From the IMG/VR virus record IMGVR_UViG_3300025889_001240, positions 1 through 20,010 of that record: a stretch of DNA of 20,010 nt; one strand, given 5' to 3'. Below, piece after piece: positions 1 through 11,342 of the stretch. The DNA is from a virus. Each line of letters starts with the position of its first letter. Position 1 is the first letter of the stretch. Under the pieces are notes generated by a model. That model did not search any database. It saw only the letters and a program-made list of their open reading frames with translations, and was not told the DNA's origin. The translations under genes were made by a program, and so were the position numbers.

Positions 1-2952
1 GTCACCGCTTTGAACAATCGTGTTGGCTCCCGTTGCCGTTCCTCTTGACTTGCCAAGAACAAGACTGGCAATAGTTCCGGCACTATTGGAGTTTCTAATA
101 ATTGAAAAACTCGAAGTGGCGTAGGTTGTGCCTTCAATTTGTACGGCTGCGGTATCACCAACAATGTTGCTACGCGCAGTAGGCGTACCAACTAAGAGGC
201 GACCCGAAGTGTCGATGGTGGCGCGTGGGGTGTTGCCTACATAAAAACCAAGTGGATGAGAAGTTTCAGTACCAAGAACTGCTGCGCCGTCATAAATGTA
301 AAAAGCGCCTTTTTGCGAACTGTCGCTTGAAGAGAGGCGTATACCACCACTTCTAGTAGTAGCAGCACCCTGAACTTCGACAGTCGTTACGTTTGTCCCC
401 AGCGAAGTAGGCGAAGCAGTGCCAATCCCTACTGACCCTTGAACAATCAATCCGTCAGTAGGCGGTGTACTAGCAACATACGAATTACCAATACTTGCTT
501 GCTTGATTCTTGTTTCTCTACCTGTCCCACCATTGACAACGAGAGAAAATCCACCTGCTGCACCGTCAACACGCAAACCCTCTGCAGCAGAAGTTTCAAC
601 GGAATGAATTCTTGCTCCAGGCGCACTGGTCCCTATGCCTACGTTGCCGGAGGAGTCGAGTACAACAGAATTGCTATTATTGGTAATAAATAGTTTGCTA
701 GATTGACTACCTCCCCAAGTGCTATTTCTATAATCAATCGACGCTTTTTCGGTGCCAGCTTCTGCAAATAAGATTTTTGAGTTCCAGTTCGTTGCAGTTT
801 GGTTGAGAGAAATAGTTGCGTAGGTATTGCCATTGCCTTCAACGACAACCTGAGTGCCAGGCGAACTAGTTCCAACACCTACTTTCCCTGTCGAATCAAT
901 AACAAGGCTATTAACTGGTGCGCTGCCGTTGAAGCTGACGGCTTGAGTAGAACCTGCGGTGCCAGCACCAACGAAGTTCAGAGCGCCGGTTGAGGTGATG
1001 CGGAGGCGTTCGGTGTTATTAGTTCGGAGTTCAACTCCGTGATTACTTCGTGCACCTAAAACTGCTGTACTGTTACCAACAGAAAACCCAATCTGATTGA
1101 TGATTGTTCCGTTTCCAGCATAAATCAATCCACGAGCATCCAAGACTGAGTTGGAATCCGGTGTTGATGTACCGAGTCCAACATTCCCACTTGCATCAAC
1201 AAACAGTCTCCCAGACCCATTAGTCGAGATGGCTACTTGGTCTGCGCCAGGTGAGTAAATGCCGGTGTTGGTGTCTCCGGTAAAGGTGACGGTGGGTGCG
1301 CCAGCCGTGCCAAGTGCGTGACTGATTACGCCGGTGGTTTGGACGGTTTGGCTGCCGAAGTCGGGGCTGATTTTGGTGCCAGCGATTGCGGCGGAAGCGT
1401 TGACATCGGCGTTGACGATCGTGCCATCAGCAATCTTTGCACTGGTAACAGCACCGTTATCAATTGTCCAAACAGTACCGGTACCGCTAACAGTGATGTC
1501 ACCGTAATCAGCGTCAGCAATGGTTCCAGCAGCAACCGTAGCGTCTACATAACCCTTGGTTGAAGCGTCAGTGCTAGCAGTAGGAGTACCAAGACCAGTG
1601 ATCTTGTTGTTGCCCATTGCAAGGGCACCGCTCATTGTGTCGCCAGTTACGTTGACATAGCGAGCGTCGTAACGATTATCAGAAGCGCTGGTTGTAAAGA
1701 AAGTGGCGTCGTCAGGGGTGCTACCAGATTGTTCAGCTGCTGTAACAACAGTAGAAGCGCTAAGTTTGGCGCTAGTAATAACACCATCAGCAATCTTTGC
1801 AGCAGTTACAGAGCTGTCTGCCAGTTTGTCAGTAGTAACATTTGCATCGACAATTTTTGCAGTCGTTACAGAATTACTAGCCAGATCTCCAGCAACAATT
1901 GTCCCATCAGCAATTTTGGCGCTGGTTACAGAGCTATCCGCCAGCTTTGCGGTAGTGACATTTGCATCAGCAATTTTGACAGTTGTAACGTTGCTGTCCA
2001 GAATTTTGGCAGTAGTAACACTGTCAGAAGCCAGATCTCCAGCAACAATTGTGCCGTCAACAATCTTTGCGCTAGTGATTGAAGAATCAGCAATCTTGGC
2101 AGTCGTAACGTTGAGATCTGCAATTTTTGCAGTTGTTACGTTTGCATCAAGAATCTTGGCAGTAGTGACAGCATCATTAGCAAGGTCACCAGCAATAATT
2201 GTTCCGTCTGCAATTTTGGCAGAAGTAACAGAATCGTTAGCCAGCTTGGCTGTGGTTACAGCTGCATCGTTAAGCTTTGCAGTCGTTACGTTGCTGTCAA
2301 GAATTTTTGCAGTGGTAACGTTTGCATCCAAGATTTTTGCAGTTGTTACAGCACCATCAGCCAGCTCTGCGGTCTCAATAGCGCCGTTAGTAACAGCAAC
2401 AGTGATTTGACCGCTAGAGGGGCTGTTGTCGGTAATTGTGATTGCGTTACCAGCAACGACATCAGTTGTCAGTGCTGTGTCGATCTTGCTGTCTACACGA
2501 CCATCAATAGCCCCTGTAGTGGCTGCGTGAGCGTTATCAGAGACCCAAGTCTCAGAAGAACCAATGAAACCACCAAGAGCTTGGAGGTCACCAGTACCGG
2601 TAGTTAATGCAGCATAGGTATCGCTGAATTCTTGGAGACCATAACGAATCTGATTATCAGCGTTATTAAGATCTTGAGCTGTGAGGGTAGAGCCTGCGGT
2701 ATAAACCACAGTTGCATCAGCGATGCTGGTTGAACGGCTGATGATGACTGTTGCACCGCTTACAGCGCTAGCCAAAACAATGGCAGTACCAGCGGCGTTA
2801 AAGGTGTAACCAGTACCTTGAGTCAGAACAGTTCCGTTAACAGTAACGGTAATGTCAGCTTGACGCAGATACGGAATTGGATCGCCTTCGCTGTTGGTCA
2901 GAGCAAACGTGGTACCAGATGCACTGGTATAGGTAATAGATGCGTAAGCCAT
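1..2952 (-). CDS. Tail fibre protein, T7 gp17-like N-terminus (3' end outside window)
   Basis: Receptor-binding fibre attached to the tail. The frame stays open for 984 codons from the ATG at 2952 to base 1, so the C-terminal tip is missing. I read all triplets from base 1 to about 1800 and found no stop. Residues 1-140 resemble the T7 gp17 tail-attachment domain: an MAYASITYTS start, a PYLRQADITVTVNG strand pair, and LTAQDLNNADNQIRYGLQE, which matches the T7 'ILRAYDLN...' helix. Residues 185-404 are 22 decapeptide repeats of the VTTAKIADxN type. Residues about 434-469 hold a GDTMSGALAMGNNKI...TKGYVD segment that is common in phage fibres. Beyond that are five GxVGIGTxxP-type motifs in beta-rich sequence. 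The start codon overlaps the stop of the gp16-like gene as TAATG, which suggests translational coupling. The N-terminal match and the position after gp16 make the role secure. The receptor cannot be deduced because the tip is absent. Confidence 0.9.
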   Translation of the reverse strand, partial: MAYASITYTSASGTTFALTNSEGDPIPYLRQADITVTVNGTVLTQGTGYTFNAAGTAIVLASAVSGATVIISRSTSIADATVVYTAGSTLTAQDLNNADNQIRYGLQEFSDTYAALTTGTGDLQALGGFIGSSETWVSDNAHAATTGAIDGRVDSKIDTALTTDVVAGNAITITDNSPSSGQITVAVTNGAIETAELADGAVTTAKILDANVTTAKILDSNVTTAKLNDAAVTTAKLANDSVTSAKIADGTIIAGDLANDAVTTAKILDANVTTAKIADLNVTTAKIADSSITSAKIVDGTIVAGDLASDSVTTAKILDSNVTTVKIADANVTTAKLADSSVTSAKIADGTIVAGDLASNSVTTAKIVDANVTTDKLADSSVTAAKIADGVITSAKLSASTVVTAAEQSGSTPDDATFFTTSASDNRYDARYVNVTGDTMSGALAMGNNKITGLGTPTASTDASTKGYVDATVAAGTIADADYGDITVSGTGTVWTIDNGAVTSAKIADGTIVNADVNASAAIAGTKISPDFGSQTVQTTGVISHALGTAGAPTVTFTGDTNTGIYSPGADQVAISTNGSGRLFVDASGNVGLGTSTPDSNSVLDARGLIYAGNGTIINQIGFSVGNSTAVLGARSNHGVELRTNNTERLRITSTGALNFVGAGTAGSTQAVSFNGSAPVNSLVIDSTGKVGVGTSSPGTQVVVEGNGNTYATISLNQTATNWNSKILFAEAGTEKASIDYRNSTWGGSQSSKLFITNNSNSVVLDSSGNVGIGTSAPGARIHSVETSAAEGLRVDGAAGGFSLVVNGGTGRETRIKQASIGNSYVASTPPTDGLIVQGSVGIGTASPTSLGTNVTTVEVQGAATTRSGGIRLSSSDSSQKGAFYIYDGAAVLGTETSHPLGFYVGNTPRATIDTSGRLLVGTPTARSNIVGDTAAVQIEGTTYATSSFSIIRNSNSAGTIASLVLGKSRGTATGANTIVQSGD
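165..1206 (-). repeat. Five dispersed 'DxSGxVGIGTxxP' motifs in the fibre
   Basis: In protein order the copies are VDASGNVGLGTSTP (about 1165-1206), IDSTGKVGVGTSSP (about 860-908), LDSSGNVGIGTSAP (about 620-665), IVQGSVGIGTASP (about 410-455) and the degenerate IDTSGRLLVGTPTA (about 165-220). Spacing is about 215-300 bp, so these are dispersed modules and not a tandem array. Similar motifs are frequent in large phage and bacterial fibre-like proteins. They probably mark the starts of repeated beta-structured domains between shaft and tip. Confidence 0.8.
1741..2400 (-). repeat. 22 in-frame 30-bp (decapeptide) repeats with a 150-bp super-period, in the tail fibre
   Basis: Twenty-two consecutive 30-nt units each encode ten residues of the form A-K-I/L-A-D-x-x-V-T-T. 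A variant pair (AKIADGTIVA then GDLASDSVTT) recurs every five units. Its DNA (agcaacaatt or agcaataatt on the + strand) starts at 1891, 2041 and 2191, exactly 150 bp apart. Units differ mainly by synonymous or conservative changes, so the repeat is under protein-level constraint. It probably forms a rigid trimeric shaft, but the fold is inferred. Isolated relatives of the unit (VTSAKIADGT, with a following INGDVNA-like stretch) occur near 1381-1450. Confidence 0.95.
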
Positions 2953-5900
2953 TACTTAGGACCTCCGGTCATGCGGTTGGTAAGAATCATCTGTTTCATT
3001 TCTGGTGGTGCTTTGTAGCGTTGACCGGGTAGGTCTCCCATTAAAAATTGCTCCTTAGCAATACCTATAAGTTTACTTACTTCGTTTTTAAGAATCACAC
3101 TTCTTACGTTGTCTTCTCGGTTCCAGTTTGCATCTTGAACTAAACCAAACGGACCCATCTTAAATGGGCTATCGACACCAGGATACTGAGTGTAATTTTT
3201 GCTGGTAACGAGATCTTTTAGGTACGGATAAATACCTTTGTAAGATTTACCGTTTTCATAGAACGAAAACTCTTGGTTAAGAAAGTGATTGAAGTCGTTT
3301 AACACAGTGTCGTTAATACCTACACCATCTGAGTGGTAAAGGGTTTTACGAGGTGGAGAGACGAGGTTGTAAACCATTTCCTTGTACACAGGATCTTCAA
3401 GCTTGTCCGGGAAGCCCCAGTAACGCCCCAGAACAGCTTGTATGGGGTACCAAACACCAGCGTTGTTAGCTTTGATCGTTTCTCCTGGTTTGCCGTACCA
3501 CAGAGCCTTACGAGAGGCTGCACGGTACTCAGGGTCCTGACTAATGCGAGAAATAAGAGCGTCAGTCAAAACACCTATTGGCTGATATTCAGCAGCAATA
3601 CCAAAAGTTCCAAAAGCTGTGTCACTGAGACTGTTAACAAAGTCAGAAAGCGTCACACCCTTTTCACCAACCTTGCCACGGCTGTAGAACTTAGAACCTG
3701 CAAACCGGCTAATAGGAGAAGCTGGTTTTCTTGGATCAATACCTTGCGTAATGACTTTACGAAGGTTGAGGAACGGATCACCAGCTTTAGCTACACCATC
3801 AGCCAGTAGTTTTTGCAAACGGCTTACATCACCGTTTTGTGCTGTGTTGACAGCCGTAAGGATCTTGTCAAAACCAGCAATAGACGGAGTGTCAAGAATT
3901 ACGTTTGCGAGAGAAGCAGCAGCTAAGGCAGTCAAAGCTGAAGTGTCTTTACCAGGAGCAAACTCTTGAAGATCCCTAATTGTGGCGTGGAACGCAAGAA
4001 CGTTACCAAGCAAAGGAATGTTGCGATAAGGATAACGTCGATCACCAATTTTCCAAGTGAACTGATCTACGCCACCTTCAGCTTCTCGATAGGAGTTCTC
4101 AAGACCACCAGTAATGTCTTGATTACCATCTCTTGTCAAGAAGAACGCAAGGCTATTAATACCAACAGAAAGAGCAAGAGCGCCTTGAGCAGCAATCCGT
4201 TGCTTTGGATCACTACTCATATATTTGCTTTCAAAATCAATAATGCTCTTACGCCATTCAGCTGGAAGGATCTTAGTTACCTGCTCTGGTAGGTTTTTCA
4301 TACCAGTAGAAAGACCAGCTCGAACAACATCAGTAGATGCTTGAGCGATCTCACCACCGTATGCAATCATTACGGCACGTTTAATGCCGTTTACTGGTGA
4401 AGTAATGATTGGAAAGATGTCACGAGCAAAGATTGCAAGTGGAGGGAATTTACTTTGACGCCAAGTGTTAATGCCGTCCGTAATAAGTCCAAGAGGTCCT
4501 GTAAGTTCTTCAGTCAGGTTTACAGCTCTGGTCAACTCAAGGATTTGATTATCAAGAACTGAATAACCAATAGTCTTTTGATCAAAACCAACTTTGATTG
4601 GTTTATACATATCAGACATATCTTTATTAAGACGTTCTGCAATAGCAGAAGCCCGATCAGCCTGATTTAAAAGACCAGCAGCAATTTGTTCTTCTACATC
4701 CAAAACAGCTCGAGCTCGTACTGAAGAATTAGCAAACAAAGCAGTAGAGAACTCGTCAGCGGTTGCAGAAAGCTGATTGAAAAGCGTAAGGTTTACATCT
4801 TCACCACCTGGGTAGTAGCTTTCTTTACCAATACCAAGGCCACGCATAGCGGTGGTAGGAAGGCCAATTGTTTTACCAATAAAGCTTCGCTTGCTCCAAG
4901 CTTCACCAGGCATAAAGTAATCGTGGAAGACTTTTGTCATCACACGACTTTTGTTGATTACATCAAACAGTTTTTCGTTTTCTTCGCTCTTTTCAAGAAC
5001 ATAGTTAAAGAACGGAACTTGAACACGAGTAGCTGCTAGATCTTGAGTAATAGCCTCTTCACGACGAAGACCAGAGTTACGAGAGAGGTCATAAGCAGCG
5101 TTTGCAGCTTGCGTAGGATCTGTCAAAGACCGACCATACACAAAGCGGTTATAGGTGGCTTCTAAAGCTTCACCTATTACAAAACGAAATTGAAGAAGCG
5201 TTTGTGTAGCCCACTTAGCTTCTGCAAGATCTTCAGCAGATGCAGCAGTACGACCAGTAATAAACTTGCCAAGAGCGTTGGTGTATCCAGCGGCAGACAT
5301 TCCCATCAACTGAGCTGCTGTTTCTGGTACAGCTTGGATGGGAATAGAAGCAATCATTGCTGGGTTGGAAAGCGGAGAACCAACTTGCAATCGAGCAAGA
5401 ACAGCATCGCCAGTTACTTCAAGCTGTTTAACTTTTTCAAAATCACCTTTGGTTTGATAAACCTTTTCAATCAGTTCTTCAAACCCTTCAAACTCTTCAT
5501 TAGTCAGTTCTTCACCGTTTTCAACCTTTTTAAAGAACTGACCAATGGTTTGATCCATTTCCTCCTTAGCGTTCTTAGCTGCTTTAGACAGGCTGTCAGC
5601 AAACTCGTTACTATCACCCATTGCTGCAAGCTGCTGGTTGAATTCGCTAAACAGCGCTTTGGGATCTTGAGTAGCAAAGCCAAGGCGGTTACGACGATCA
5701 AACAGTCTCAAAGCGTTACCAACGCCATAGAACTGCTCGCTAATAGCTTTAGCGTTTGCCATAAGGACCTTGTAGCTGTTAGACGCCAAAGCCAAAGCTT
5801 GGTCACGATCTAATCCTTCGATCTCTTCACCACGAATAATTTGACGAAGATTACGAGCGTCGCGTAGAGCAGCTGTAGCGCTGTCATCCAGCATTGCTAC

Positions 5901-8528
5901 AGGAGCGATAATTTTGTTCAAATTCTTTTGAATGTCTTTACCAAACTTTTCGGACTCAGCTAAAAGTGCAAGTTTTTGAGCAATCGAATTTTGACCAATT
6001 AATGGTGCAAGTTTTCTAATTGCAATTCCATATTGCTGAGGCAGGATTGCTTTACGTCCATCAAGAGAATCCACGGCAGCTTTGACCACTGCAGCGTTTT
6101 CAAAAGAACTTACATACTTAACCGCGTTAGTGCTGTAGATCTTGGTTGCATTTTCTGCAAGATCAGTCCCGTTACGAATGTCATCAACAACTAGCTCACC
6201 TTGTTTAGTGATGATCTTGTTGAAGTTATTGATGAAATCATTCAGAGTCTCTTTGGTTTCAGTTGGATCAAGATTCTGTTGAAGAGCTTTGTTGGTCTCT
6301 TTAATCAGATCAGAGAAGGAGCCAGACACCTCATCAATTTGAGGAGCTTGGATAGCTTCACGTTCAGCCAGGGCGTTGGCATCAATGACAATCTCTCCCT
6401 CATCAGTCTTGGTGACAGGCACTGAGGTAGAGATAGGAGAAGGATCTCGAGGTAGCTGAAGCTGAGGATCAATAGCTTCTTCTGCTTGAGTTGTAGTAGG
6501 TAGATCAATCCCTTCAGCAGGAATCTCAGGGGTAATAGGAGCTAGGCCACCGTTTTCAATGACTTTGTTGTGAATGGCATCAGTACGCTGAACAAAGGTA
6601 CGAATGAACTCTTCGTTCAGGTTGCCAGTAGCTACAGCAGCTTCAGCAGCATTCAGAAGGTCTTTGAGCTCTCCGTAGGCCTCACCGTAAGCATCTTGAA
6701 TCCTGTAATCAAAGTCCATCTCATCGAGACGGTTCTCTGCAAACAATTGAGAGTTACGGCTTTCCAGCAGTTGAATACGTTGTGAATCCAGCTCATCAAG
6801 AGCGTTAATCAAGATCCGAGCATCGTTCAAGCTGTTACGGAACCCAAGAGAAGCCGTCATGGTGTCTGCAGTCAGACGCTCCAGCTCGCTTTCTCGTGCC
6901 AACCGCTCAAGATTTGCGTTTTCAAACTCACCCTTCTGTAGATACAGGTCTTCCAGAAGTTTGATTTGATCAGCAAGCTCAGTAGCTTTACGAAGTTTTG
7001 AGCTGTTCTTACTGGCCTTTTTACCAGTACCAGTGCTTTTCAAGAGCCAATCAGGATCCTTAGCGATTGCAGCTTCATAGCCAGCAAGACGCTCTTGAAT
7101 CATGGAGCTTTTCTTCATCAAGCTCTCTTTGCTATTTACGCCAAGAATCTTTTGAAGAGAAGTAATATCAGTATCAACTTGCTGCAGCTGAGGGGTCAGA
7201 TCAGGAGCACCTTGAAGGCGAGCAATGGCGTCCTCAGTTTCAGGCAACAGTTCTTGACGCTTGCTTAGGAACGATTCAGCACCAGCACGACCGTTACGAG
7301 CAATGTCAGCAACGTTCTCTTCGATCTTGCGATACAGCTGAGAGTTGATGTCTCCAAGCCTTTGTTCACGAAGTTCATTGGCACGTTGGAGTCCCTCAGC
7401 TTCGATGCTTTGACGCATCATGGGCTCAGCTTCTGCAGCAGCGTCCTCAAAGGCCTGCTTAGCCGGTACGTTAGCTGTTGCTTTTCTAAGAGCCCTATTA
7501 GCAGCCCAGAACGCCCCTCGAAGCACTCCAAGGGTGGCTGTACCTGCAGCAGCGTTTTTAAGCTGTTCGTAGTAGTAATCGAACTCTGAATCGCTTGTAG
7601 CCCTCAGAACTTGAGCAGCAGCGATACGTTGTTCAGGAGTACGAAGTTTCTGCACTTCATCCAACTGCTTTTGAATAGCAGCAGGAGCAGTGGGCATAAA
7701 GAACATTGCATCTTGGATTGCGTTAGGGATAACGTCTTGAACCAAGAAACGAGCAACAACTTCAGTACCTTTTCGAATATCAGCAGATTTCCAAACATCA
7801 ACCAGTTTGTCTGCAGTTTGGACAGTCTTACCGACCATCGAAGGGGCTTGAAGCAGCTTACTGACGCCTTTATCACCAGCAACAGAAGCAAAGACACCAG
7901 CAGCCAGTTGACCACCCCAGGTCTTTGGTTTGATGTTTTGCTTTACAAACTCGCTGTCTTCACTAAACAGAGGGCCGAGAACAGGGACGTTAGGGCGAAT
8001 ACCGTAGCTAAATCCTTCAGGGTCCCTAGCGGTCTTTCTAAGGGCCTCAGAGGCCGCTTGAGCGCTCTTAATCCTTTGCTGTTCCTTTTGCTTATCCAGC
8101 TCCAAAGAACCAGTGGTCATAGGGCCACCAAGCTGTCCAGCAGGAGCAGCACCACGAGTTACAGCTTCTAGTTGCTGAGCTGCAGCAATAGGAGCGTTGA
8201 CCATCAAACGGCCAGCTTCTGCAGCAATACGAGGGGCTTCTTGACCGACAGTAGTGCCACCAGCAAACGGAATAGGAACCCGTCCAGCAGCTTTAATCAG
8301 CTGAATAACTGGATGAGATTGCAGGATGTCAGAACCTTTTTCTTTAACAAACTGACCTAGATCAAAACCACGCTTAGGTTGAGGCTTAGGTTTTGCAGCG
8401 GGTTTTGAAGGAGCAGCAGCTACTTGTTGAGTAGGTTGGCTACCCCATTCCTGTTGGTATCTTTGTTCTGCTTGACCAGGATCAGCTACGAATTCTGTTT
8501 GACCGTTACGAAGGGGAACGTAGGGCAT
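2952..8528 (-). CDS. Very large internal virion / ejection protein, T7 gp16-like position
   Basis: The protein has 1858 residues against about 1318 for T7 gp16. It lies between the gp15-like gene and the fibre, exactly where T7 has gene 16, so it is most likely the ejection protein that forms the trans-envelope DNA conduit. Residues 38-54 are a Pro/Lys/Ala linker (AAPSKPAAKPKPQPKRG). Residues about 505-630 are highly charged, Leu-rich and predicted coiled coil. Around residue 1365-1380 (nt 4381-4430) is ARDIFPIITSPVNGIKRA, which resembles the F-P-x-x-T-P-x-N-x-x-K motif seen in large ejected phage proteins. A hydrophobic stretch (LALSVGINSLAFFL) lies near residue 1450. I see no lysozyme or soluble lytic transglycosylase signature in the first 200 residues, unlike T7 gp16. 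The ATG at 8528 has no adjacent Shine-Dalgarno. A GGAGG lies about 25 nt upstream, too far for normal use. The function is inferred mainly from synteny, size and composition. Confidence 0.75.
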   Translation of the reverse strand: MPYVPLRNGQTEFVADPGQAEQRYQQEWGSQPTQQVAAAPSKPAAKPKPQPKRGFDLGQFVKEKGSDILQSHPVIQLIKAAGRVPIPFAGGTTVGQEAPRIAAEAGRLMVNAPIAAAQQLEAVTRGAAPAGQLGGPMTTGSLELDKQKEQQRIKSAQAASEALRKTARDPEGFSYGIRPNVPVLGPLFSEDSEFVKQNIKPKTWGGQLAAGVFASVAGDKGVSKLLQAPSMVGKTVQTADKLVDVWKSADIRKGTEVVARFLVQDVIPNAIQDAMFFMPTAPAAIQKQLDEVQKLRTPEQRIAAAQVLRATSDSEFDYYYEQLKNAAAGTATLGVLRGAFWAANRALRKATANVPAKQAFEDAAAEAEPMMRQSIEAEGLQRANELREQRLGDINSQLYRKIEENVADIARNGRAGAESFLSKRQELLPETEDAIARLQGAPDLTPQLQQVDTDITSLQKILGVNSKESLMKKSSMIQERLAGYEAAIAKDPDWLLKSTGTGKKASKNSSKLRKATELADQIKLLEDLYLQKGEFENANLERLARESELERLTADTMTASLGFRNSLNDARILINALDELDSQRIQLLESRNSQLFAENRLDEMDFDYRIQDAYGEAYGELKDLLNAAEAAVATGNLNEEFIRTFVQRTDAIHNKVIENGGLAPITPEIPAEGIDLPTTTQAEEAIDPQLQLPRDPSPISTSVPVTKTDEGEIVIDANALAEREAIQAPQIDEVSGSFSDLIKETNKALQQNLDPTETKETLNDFINNFNKIITKQGELVVDDIRNGTDLAENATKIYSTNAVKYVSSFENAAVVKAAVDSLDGRKAILPQQYGIAIRKLAPLIGQNSIAQKLALLAESEKFGKDIQKNLNKIIAPVAMLDDSATAALRDARNLRQIIRGEEIEGLDRDQALALASNSYKVLMANAKAISEQFYGVGNALRLFDRRNRLGFATQDPKALFSEFNQQLAAMGDSNEFADSLSKAAKNAKEEMDQTIGQFFKKVENGEELTNEEFEGFEELIEKVYQTKGDFEKVKQLEVTGDAVLARLQVGSPLSNPAMIASIPIQAVPETAAQLMGMSAAGYTNALGKFITGRTAASAEDLAEAKWATQTLLQFRFVIGEALEATYNRFVYGRSLTDPTQAANAAYDLSRNSGLRREEAITQDLAATRVQVPFFNYVLEKSEENEKLFDVINKSRVMTKVFHDYFMPGEAWSKRSFIGKTIGLPTTAMRGLGIGKESYYPGGEDVNLTLFNQLSATADEFSTALFANSSVRARAVLDVEEQIAAGLLNQADRASAIAERLNKDMSDMYKPIKVGFDQKTIGYSVLDNQILELTRAVNLTEELTGPLGLITDGINTWRQSKFPPLAIFARDIFPIITSPVNGIKRAVMIAYGGEIAQASTDVVRAGLSTGMKNLPEQVTKILPAEWRKSIIDFESKYMSSDPKQRIAAQGALALSVGINSLAFFLTRDGNQDITGGLENSYREAEGGVDQFTWKIGDRRYPYRNIPLLGNVLAFHATIRDLQEFAPGKDTSALTALAAASLANVILDTPSIAGFDKILTAVNTAQNGDVSRLQKLLADGVAKAGDPFLNLRKVITQGIDPRKPASPISRFAGSKFYSRGKVGEKGVTLSDFVNSLSDTAFGTFGIAAEYQPIGVLTDALISRISQDPEYRAASRKALWYGKPGETIKANNAGVWYPIQAVLGRYWGFPDKLEDPVYKEMVYNLVSPPRKTLYHSDGVGINDTVLNDFNHFLNQEFSFYENGKSYKGIYPYLKDLVTSKNYTQYPGVDSPFKMGPFGLVQDANWNREDNVRSVILKNEVSKLIGIAKEQFLMGDLPGQRYKAPPEMKQMILTNRMTGGPK

Positions 8529-8585: not shown

Positions 8586-11342
8586 CTAGCGACGGTTCGG
8601 ATCGCTAACTGCACGGAACAGGGGATAGAACGATTTACGGAAGAATTCGTTTTGACGTTCTTGAATGTACTGATCAACGCGACTGGGGAAACCCTTACCA
8701 GGCTTAAACAGTTGGCTATGAAGGTGACCAGGGGTACCAGTGCCTGTAGTAGAGCGACCAGGAACACTGTTAGTCGCACTTTGATCGCCAGCAATCAAAA
8801 TGTTTTGACCACGATTAATTGTTTGACCGTTACGAACCAACAATTGAGCAGCGTGACCCAACAGCAGACGATCCCCAGCACGATAACCAGGACCATTTGA
8901 AGTGGCTTCAATAACTACCGTATTGCCAAAACCTTGGACAGGTCCTGAGTAAACCACACGGCCACTCATAGGGCTAGGAAGAGGGTTAGCTGTTTGAGCT
9001 TTGTTACCTCGTTCAACTTGAAAATCAACAGAACGGTTAGGAGAGTGAGAGTGGTGGAAGTTATACACATACAGCTGCATATCCCTAGGAGCCGTCCCAG
9101 TGCCAGCTACAGGAGCTTTAACAGCAGTTTGAATGAGCTGAGCGTTCTTAGAGAACTCAGGCCTAGTCATCACACCAAAACGAGCTGATTGCTGTTTAAC
9201 AATTTCAGCTGCTGTCAGTTTGTTACCAAAAGCTCCTTGAACGTTTGCAATGCTGCGACGAGTACCAGCACTCAAAGCAGATGTATCGCCAGTGATCAGG
9301 GCTTTGTTGATTTCATTAAGCTCTGTTTGATTGAACACAAAGTTGTTGTTTAGATAATCACGAGCTTTGGCTGGTGTGTTGAGATACGGTCTAGCCAACG
9401 TTGCCCAAGTAGCTCGGTTATCAACGTCGTTAATGTTGATCTCCCAACGGCCATCAGAAAGCTTTTTAGAGGTACCTAGACGCGGCCCAGAGACGTTTGG
9501 CTTACCGATTTGATCAGTAATGTTGTAGTACGAATCAACGTCGTTGTACTGAGGTTGGGTGTAGAAGTACTTTCTGGCGTCTTCAAGAATCCTCAGTTGT
9601 ACAAGAGGATCTTTAACATCCTCACCACGCATCCGAGCTTCGTAGATCTTGTTGTTGATGTACTTACTACCTTCAGCTTTAAGACGTTGACCAGCAAGAA
9701 TAACAGCTTGCTTAAGAAGGGCTTTCTTTTGCTGCCCAACTTGTCCTTCAGAACCGACAAGCCTCATTTGCTCATCAGCCATAAAGCTACCTTCAAGACC
9801 TTTTACAAGGTCACTAAGGATTGAATTACGAGCTTTACTAGTGTCTGGGTTAGCAGCAGCGCGAGCAGCATCTCCAAACTTATTAATGGCATAAGCCATC
9901 ACAGTAGTGCCTTCGATTCGAGCAGCAAGATCAGCAGGCATTTCAGTAACACCTTGAGCTGCTAGATCTTCTATTTCTTCTTTTAAAAGCTGTTCAGCGG
10001 CAGGGCTAAGGTCTTTTTTGGTTTGGAACGGATACGCTTTATCCACCAGATCATCAGCATCAGCAACTGACATACCTTCAGGAAGAAGCCCTTCAGCAGC
10101 TAGCTGACGATTACGAGATTTAAGAGTGCTTCGTTGATCTGTAATTTGTTGATCTGAAGGATTGGGAAACTGAGCGTAGAACTGATTGGCTTGATCGTTG
10201 AAATCCCTTTTCCACTGACGCTGAGCACGCTGAACACTTCTTTCAATAGAACCTTCAAAAACTTCTTGAGCTTTTACGGCTTGAATAGCACCTGCTTCAA
10301 GCGCTTGTCGGAACGTCTCTCCTTTTGCGTTACGCAGATCAAGGATTGACTGACCATCTGCAGTTTTGATGTTTTGCCAAGCTTTGACGTAGTTTAAATA
10401 GCTAAACGTTTCTCCAAGATCGTTATAGCCATCTTTGTTTACATCAATAAACAGATTTGGAGCTTCACGGAACAACAGCTCGTGAAACGCTTTTTCGGAA
10501 TAACCTCGAGTTACGACGTAATAGTTATAGGCTTCGTTGTAACCGTTCTGAAGGCTTTGTTCACCAAACCTAGTACCAGTCTCATTTCCATAAGACCCTT
10601 TTACAAACTGAGCACCAAGTTTGATATTGCCTAAGAATTTCTGAGCAGCAATGTTTTGATCAGTGCGCTCTGCTCGTTCAAAGGTTTTAACAGTTACGTC
10701 CTTTTTAACATCAGCTAAGACAGAACTAACAAGAGGATCAATCTTGGCTGTTCTGAATGCAGCTGGAATGTCTGAATACGGACGAAGCAGTTCCTCTACT
10801 TTGTTACCAAGAATTGCTGCACGTTCTGCGGGGTTATCAATTTCAGCAATACGTTCAGCGTTCTGTTTACCCCAAGCAGCAAGACCTACACCGACTTCCT
10901 TACCAGCGTTTGTTGCTTTGGTGTCGTAATAGAAGAAGTTAACCCAAGGGTTGCTAATACGATTTTGACGAGCAAGGTTTTCGTTGCCTGTCTTTTCAAG
11001 CTGTTTGGTTTCCTTTGCGTTTTCAAGAGAGTCTCGAACAGCAGCCGCTTCCTGCTGCAACAGCCTTGTAGCTTCTTGACGCTTTTGCTCTTTATAGTTT
11101 TCAAACAGTTGTGCAGAAGCCTGTCCAAAAGCTCCTTCTTTGCTTAAGAAGCTTTGAATGCTTTCAATAGCTTGAGTAGCAGCTGTATTGGGCTGGTAAG
11201 ACGCACCGTAATACAGCTGTCCACCAACCTGTTTAGGAGTGTAAGTAGGTTTTGCAGGTTCTGGTGGAGCAGCTTCTTGCCTAGGACCAGCTACAAGATT
11301 ACGGATCTGACGTTGAGGAGAGATTCCAAAACTACTGGTCAT
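8586..11342 (-). CDS. Internal virion protein, T7 gp15-like position, with C-terminal M23-type peptidase domain
   Basis: This 918-residue protein follows the gp14-like gene with an ATGA overlap. T7 gp15 is about 747 residues, and the extra length fits an added C-terminal domain. Residues 1-60 are Pro/Gln-rich and probably flexible. The middle is mostly helical and polar (for example NPWVNFFYYDTKATNAGKEV, then KVEELLRPYSDIP), as expected for an ejectosome core protein. Residues about 757-900 look like an M23 (lysostaphin/LytM) metallopeptidase. A His cluster with Asp occurs at H763/H764/H766...D773, LLLGHAAQLLVRNGQ resembles the usual Y-x-H-L...V-x-x-G-Q segment with His830, and GTGTPGHLHSQLF gives the HxH zinc motif at H873/H875. 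This domain would locally cleave peptidoglycan cross-links during DNA entry. The residue normally occupying the first zinc position of HxGxD is Asn (NRSVD), so H766 or H764 may substitute, or the site may be altered. The domain call is good, activity is unproven. Confidence 0.82.
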   Translation of the reverse strand: MTSSFGISPQRQIRNLVAGPRQEAAPPEPAKPTYTPKQVGGQLYYGASYQPNTAATQAIESIQSFLSKEGAFGQASAQLFENYKEQKRQEATRLLQQEAAAVRDSLENAKETKQLEKTGNENLARQNRISNPWVNFFYYDTKATNAGKEVGVGLAAWGKQNAERIAEIDNPAERAAILGNKVEELLRPYSDIPAAFRTAKIDPLVSSVLADVKKDVTVKTFERAERTDQNIAAQKFLGNIKLGAQFVKGSYGNETGTRFGEQSLQNGYNEAYNYYVVTRGYSEKAFHELLFREAPNLFIDVNKDGYNDLGETFSYLNYVKAWQNIKTADGQSILDLRNAKGETFRQALEAGAIQAVKAQEVFEGSIERSVQRAQRQWKRDFNDQANQFYAQFPNPSDQQITDQRSTLKSRNRQLAAEGLLPEGMSVADADDLVDKAYPFQTKKDLSPAAEQLLKEEIEDLAAQGVTEMPADLAARIEGTTVMAYAINKFGDAARAAANPDTSKARNSILSDLVKGLEGSFMADEQMRLVGSEGQVGQQKKALLKQAVILAGQRLKAEGSKYINNKIYEARMRGEDVKDPLVQLRILEDARKYFYTQPQYNDVDSYYNITDQIGKPNVSGPRLGTSKKLSDGRWEININDVDNRATWATLARPYLNTPAKARDYLNNNFVFNQTELNEINKALITGDTSALSAGTRRSIANVQGAFGNKLTAAEIVKQQSARFGVMTRPEFSKNAQLIQTAVKAPVAGTGTAPRDMQLYVYNFHHSHSPNRSVDFQVERGNKAQTANPLPSPMSGRVVYSGPVQGFGNTVVIEATSNGPGYRAGDRLLLGHAAQLLVRNGQTINRGQNILIAGDQSATNSVPGRSTTGTGTPGHLHSQLFKPGKGFPSRVDQYIQERQNEFFRKSFYPLFRAVSDPNRR
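8640..9074 (-). other. M23-type peptidase domain within the gp15-like protein
   Basis: The domain covers residues 757 to about 900 of the gp15-like protein. The order of motifs is H...D, then a beta-rich core (PMSGRVVYSGPVQGFGNTVV), then GH...V-x-x-G-Q-x-I-x-x-G-Q-x-I, then HLH. The core and the last two motifs match the M23 family layout. The first motif is non-canonical in spacing, with His seven residues before Asp and not four. Confidence 0.75.

What the first reader, a model, noticed from the sequence alone, without database searches (positions are those of the whole stretch)
1741..2400. Nested 30-bp and 150-bp repeats build the tail fibre shaft
Twenty-two ten-residue units run in perfect phase. 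A marker pair (AKIADGTIVA/GDLASDSVTT) recurs exactly every five units (1891, 2041, 2191). This points to expansion by duplication of a 50-residue block after an older decapeptide expansion. Such an array can change length by recombination and so could tune fibre length. A lone relative near 1381-1450 suggests the array was once longer or was copied downstream.
Basis: partly seen in the sequence, partly recalled or inferred. Interest (0 to 1): 0.6.

Follow-up and report, generated by a model that had tools for sequence, protein, structure and literature searches.

The report
Repeat-built phage tail-fibre shaft
A T7-like phage related to marine cyanobacterial phages builds part of its tail fibre from a ten-residue repeat arranged in older fifty-residue blocks; relatives carry anywhere from none to about 28 such units, so shaft length and tip are exchanged in evolution, but this copy shows no sign of recent expansion.

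Summary
The repeat is real. Twenty-two in-phase decapeptide units lie at window 2382-1723 (minus strand, fibre residues 191-410), 18 nt from the quoted coordinates; the first and last units are degenerate. Marker units recur every 50 residues. The 150-bp autocorrelation is 0.64 against a 0.28 background, and reordering the units almost never reproduces the 50-residue period (p about 5e-5).

The interpretation needs revising. (1) DNA identity at lag 150 (0.660) equals what the shared protein alone would give (0.647, sd 0.016), so the duplication is old and the array is not a currently unstable tract. (2) Unit number does vary between the same flanks in relatives: 3, 13, 17 and 21 units here. 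The difference from the nearest relatives is four units, not five. (3) Breakpoints between phages fall inside the array: L004 and L029 share about 94% DNA up to unit 5, then nothing. (4) The 'lone relative' at 1369-1452 is a cap motif that ends many decapeptide arrays, not a relic. (5) In another fibre family 30 diverse loci keep 16-17 units, so length can be held fixed.

The nearest isolate by capsid, Prochlorococcus phage P-RSP2, has a different repeat in the same place. The kind of system is known. The trimeric fold could not be tested.

The parts
1..2952 (-). T7-like tail fibre gene (gp17-like), 984 residues, cut off by the end of the record
   Evidence: Open ORF; PF03906 Phage_T7_tail E 8.3e-12; gene order portal, scaffold, capsid, tube, nozzle, internal virion proteins upstream
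2383..2952 (-). N-terminal anchor, residues 1-190 (PF03906 at residues 25-124)
   Evidence: conserved 68-87% in the IMG/VR relatives matched over all or nearly all of residues 1-180, apart from L045 (59%)
1723..2382 (-). Decapeptide array, 22 units in phase (residues 191-410), consensus [ASN]VTTAKIADx
2173..2202 (-). Marker unit 1, TIIAGDLAND (residues 251-260)
2023..2052 (-). Marker unit 2, TIVAGDLASD (residues 301-310)
1873..1902 (-). Marker unit 3, TIVAGDLASN (residues 351-360); shares a 24-nt exact match with marker 2
1660..1752 (-). Conserved post-array junction TVVTxAEQSxSTPDDxxFFTTSASDxRY, shared with relatives of other array lengths
1369..1452 (-). 'Lone relative': end-cap motif AVTSAKIADG TIVNADVNAS AAIAGTKI (residues 501-528)
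   Evidence: DNA match; the same motif ends decapeptide arrays in other fibres

Best explanation
The array is the proximal shaft of a T7-like tail fibre of a phage related to marine cyanopodoviruses. It is made of decapeptide units (one predicted short strand each, in low-confidence models) that most likely form an elongated trimeric rod between the conserved virion anchor and exchangeable distal domains. It grew first from single units. A five-unit block was then copied before this phage split from its nearest relatives (L003/L006/L019/L029 share the five-unit marker spacing). In evolution the array has two effects: it gains and loses whole units, which keeps the rod in register, and it offers a stretch of similarity inside which homologous recombination between phages swaps the anchor against different distal parts. 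Shown: nested repeat, differing unit number between conserved flanks, breakpoints inside arrays, absence of recent expansion in this copy. Inferred: rod-like trimer, growth by unequal recombination, and any effect on host binding.
For: Same anchor and same post-array junction with 3 (L014), 13 (L033, L034), 17 (L003, L006, L019, L029) and 21 units (window); all gaps inside the array are multiples of ten residues. L004 against L029: gene upstream about 72% DNA, fibre codons 1-240 about 94%, then a drop to 45% and unalignable from unit 6 on; four-fold sites 81% identical in the anchor against 49% upstream, so this is transfer and not protein constraint. L034 against L020 also diverge inside the array. 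L003/L029 and L003/L006 share fibre anchor and array at 77-85% of four-fold sites (68-75% over the first five units) while the upstream gene is at 43-47%. The five-unit period recurs in L006 (p 0.026 over lags) and weakly in L003 (p 0.058). Isolates S-CBP3, P-SSP3, P-GSP1 and S-TIP37 have 7, 26, 26 and 28 units. P-RSP2, with 83% capsid identity and 69% anchor identity, has no decapeptide array and a 13/74-residue repeat instead.
Against: No structure supports the rod: AlphaFold2 monomer models are poor (mean pLDDT 52 and 55) and the fold search gave nothing at E <= 0.001. A family with 30 loci keeps 16-17 units, so length is not freely variable. Metagenome contigs could contain assembly errors in repeats, although copies this divergent should assemble correctly.
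Confidence: 0.75

Rival explanations
1. The array is a currently unstable tandem repeat that changes length within the phage population and tunes fibre length.
For: Unit number differs between relatives; some other arrays of this class are freshly amplified (L109 with 119-nt exact repeats, L073, L072, L068).
Against: In the window, DNA identity between blocks is just what the protein requires (z 0.8), the longest exact repeat is 24 nt, and four relatives at about 86-93% DNA identity to each other in the anchor all have the same 17 units.
Confidence: 0.1
2. The 50-residue period is a structural rule of the fold (for example a whole number of turns), kept by selection and not a trace of block duplication.
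For: The period is visible in protein and only to the expected degree in DNA.
Against: Among 66 dissimilar arrays the best superperiod ranges from 1 to 8 units and only 23 are significant; isolates show other superperiods, such as 80-90 residues in P-GSP1; the length step to the nearest relatives is 40 residues.
Confidence: 0.12
3. The units fold as a monomeric pentapeptide-like square beta-helix, since each decapeptide reads as two A-x-hydrophobic-x-x pentapeptides.
For: phmmer matches to designed pentapeptide-like proteins and to NP275-NP276 (E 3.5e-8 to 2.4e-5); Pentapeptide_4 E 2e-4.
Against: Scores are below the Pfam cut-off (21.8 against 38); composition bias can cause such matches; AlphaFold2 does not give a confident solenoid; T7-like fibres are trimers (established knowledge).
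Confidence: 0.15

Closest known systems
T7 gp17 tail fibre and its cyanopodovirus homologues (PF03906)
   Same: N-terminal domain and position after the internal virion genes
   Different: The T7 shaft is not this decapeptide repeat (own knowledge); here the proximal shaft is a decapeptide array
Decapeptide-array fibres of Synechococcus/Prochlorococcus phages S-CBP3, P-SSP3, P-GSP1, S-TIP37
   Same: Same unit type after a T7-like anchor; higher-order repeats also present in some
   Different: 7 to 28 units and different superperiods
Prochlorococcus phage P-RSP2 fibre
   Same: Closest capsid (83%) and 69% identical anchor
   Different: Shaft made of an unrelated 13-residue repeat in 74-residue blocks
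Pfam PF25296 Decapeptide repeat region; IcmE/DotG repeats
   Same: Ten-residue period with similar hydrophobic spacing
   Different: Score below cut-off (22.2 against 45 bits); IcmE/DotG is a cellular secretion protein; homology not shown
Collagen-like repeats in streptococcal phage fibres (own knowledge, a lead only)
   Same: Repeat tract in a fibre that varies in length and could serve as a recombination site
   Different: Unrelated repeat chemistry; not tested here

Membership tests
T7-like tail fibre (gp17) | PF03906 N-terminal domain | tested here: met
   E 8.3e-12, 45.5 bits against cut-off 25.2
T7-like tail fibre (gp17) | Encoded in the T7-like virion gene block | tested here: met
   Portal, scaffold, capsid, tube and nozzle Pfam matches above cut-off in order; gp14-like match below its cut-off
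T7-like tail fibre (gp17) | Homotrimer attached to the tail | not testable with these tools
   Only monomer prediction available
Pfam PF25296 Decapeptide | Reaches the curated score | tested here: not met
   22.2 bits against 45
Pentapeptide repeat fold (PF13599) | Reaches the curated score | tested here: not met
   21.8 bits against 38
Pentapeptide repeat fold (PF13599) | Square right-handed beta-helix | tested here: inconclusive
   Low-confidence models, pLDDT 52 and 55
Recently amplified (labile) tandem repeat | Near-identical DNA copies beyond what the protein requires | tested here: not met
   Lag 150 z 0.8; positive controls L109, L073, L072 reach z 5 to 8.3
Recently amplified (labile) tandem repeat | Length variation within one population | not testable with these tools
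   No reads available

The most novel reading that the evidence does not exclude
Decapeptide arrays act as a general recombination joint of marine phage fibres: whole-unit gain and loss sets rod length while in-register crossover swaps anchors and tips, with lineages switching between free length (3 to 21 units) and a fixed-length 'ruler' regime (17 units).
Probability: 0.3. Interest if true: 0.55.

Novelty: new member of a known kind. Interest (0 to 1): 0.33.

Why it matters
It gives a worked case in which repeat number, block duplication and recombination breakpoints in a fibre can be read from sequence and separated in age. If the joint model holds, it would help explain how marine phages exchange tips while keeping the virion attachment. 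For this window itself the result is ordinary: an old, repeat-built fibre shaft.

Tried and rejected
Recent expansion: rejected by codon-resampling, with positive controls from the same class. A universal five-unit rule: rejected. A relic origin of the downstream copy: the same kind of motif ends 44 of 97 arrays of 12 or more units and occurs in relatives without a long array (L039-L041). Structure: two AlphaFold2 monomer runs gave low confidence, and the viral fold search on such a model gave no match at E <= 0.001 and is not used. Literature searches for decapeptide or length-varying fibre repeats found nothing useful in the held library. No tRNA in the window. Two locus searches failed on a frame error and were repeated.

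Full report
What is there. The window is a 20,010-base virus record with a T7-like virion block on the minus strand: portal, scaffold, capsid, tube, nozzle, gp14-like, an M23-peptidase-containing internal protein, a long protein in the gp16 position, and a tail fibre. The fibre is cut off at window position 1. Its N-terminus matches PF03906. The closest capsid among phage records is that of Prochlorococcus phage P-RSP2, 83.4% identical; all other records are below 60%.

The observation. Residues 191-410 are 22 decapeptide units in perfect phase, window 2382-1723; the first and last are degenerate. Marker units sit at residues 251, 301 and 351. TRF reports the 150-bp period. Lag-150 identity is 0.643 against a background of 0.278, and shuffling unit order shows that the five-unit order is not chance.

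Age of the blocks. If blocks had been copied recently, their DNA would be more alike than the protein demands. I kept the protein fixed and redrew codons from the usage of the window's genes: expected lag-150 identity 0.647 (sd 0.016), observed 0.660, z 0.8. Where residues agree at lag five, codons agree in 51% of cases against 40% expected by usage, hardly more than at most other lags. The longest exact repeat is 24 nt; simulated arrays had a mean longest match of 17 and reached 25 once in 100. The same test applied to other arrays of this class does find recent amplification, for example L109 (z 8.3, 119-nt exact repeat), L073 and L072. So the test has power, and the window's array is old.

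Relatives. Forty-eight IMG/VR loci carry the same anchor, some only in part. Counting units from the S/AI-x-TA-K/E-L unit up to the T[IV]VTxAE junction gives 3 in L014, 13 in L033 and L034, 17 in L003, L006, L019 and L029, and 21 in the window. L004 and its close relatives have about nine, one of them shortened, before a different distal part; several other relatives have no array at all. All alignment gaps inside the array are multiples of ten residues (40, 80, 140, 180). Against its nearest relatives the window has four more units, which can be read as one insertion of four or as a block of five gained and one unit lost. The five-unit period is shared with L006 and, weakly, L003, so it predates their split.

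Recombination. L004 and L029 are about 72% identical in DNA in the gene upstream, 90-98% over most of the fibre from its start to unit 5 (83-85% in two 60-nt bins), and lose similarity abruptly at unit 6. Four-fold degenerate sites show the same contrast (81% in the anchor, 49% upstream), which protein constraint cannot explain. L034 and L020 diverge inside the array as well. L003/L029 and L003/L006 share anchor and array at far higher four-fold identity than the gene before it. P-RSP2 has a 69% identical anchor but a 13-residue, 74-residue-block repeat in place of the array. Anchor plus proximal array therefore moves between phages, and the array is one of the places where exchange ends.

A counter-example. 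Thirty loci of another fibre family found with the array (median array identity 0.73, minimum 0.58 among 24 of them) keep 16 or 17 units and, in nearly all, the same spacing from head to end-cap. In that lineage length seems to be held by selection. Length freedom is thus a property of some lineages and not of the repeat itself. The loci were picked by similarity to the window's array, and a few are overlapping stretches of one contig, so the sample is not random or fully independent.

The lone relative. AVTSAKIADG TIVNADVNAS AAIAGTKI (1452-1369) is of a motif that closes 44 of 97 arrays of 12 or more units, and it stands after only a unit or two in L039-L041. It is best read as a standard cap module.

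Structure and naming. The unit resembles two pentapeptide repeats, and phmmer links it to pentapeptide proteins and IcmE/DotG, but the Pfam scores are below cut-off and monomer models are poor. A trimer could not be modelled. The shaft role is inferred from position and from T7-like fibres in general.

Verdict. A real and well-described nested repeat; an old one; a known kind of fibre shaft, with good evidence for unit-wise length change and for recombination in related phages over evolutionary time.

Noticed in passing
window 2955-8528 (-): The 1,858-residue protein in the gp16 position has no match in Pfam or PHROGs at E 0.001.
   Followed up: no
window 8586-11342 (-): Internal virion protein carries an M23 peptidase domain near its C-terminus (residues 782-878), probably a wall-cutting enzyme for genome entry.
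   Followed up: no
L109, L073, L072, L068: Arrays of the same unit type with long exact repeats (61-119 nt), hence recently amplified; good places to look for length change in reads.
   Followed up: partly
30 loci between L057 and L208 (listed): A fibre-like family with 16-17 decapeptide units throughout despite diverged sequence, suggesting a fixed length.
   Followed up: partly
L219 (P-RSP2) 3001-6282: Fibre shaft made of 13-residue repeats in 74-residue blocks, a second nested repeat in the same position; a similar repeat is visible in L028.
   Followed up: partly
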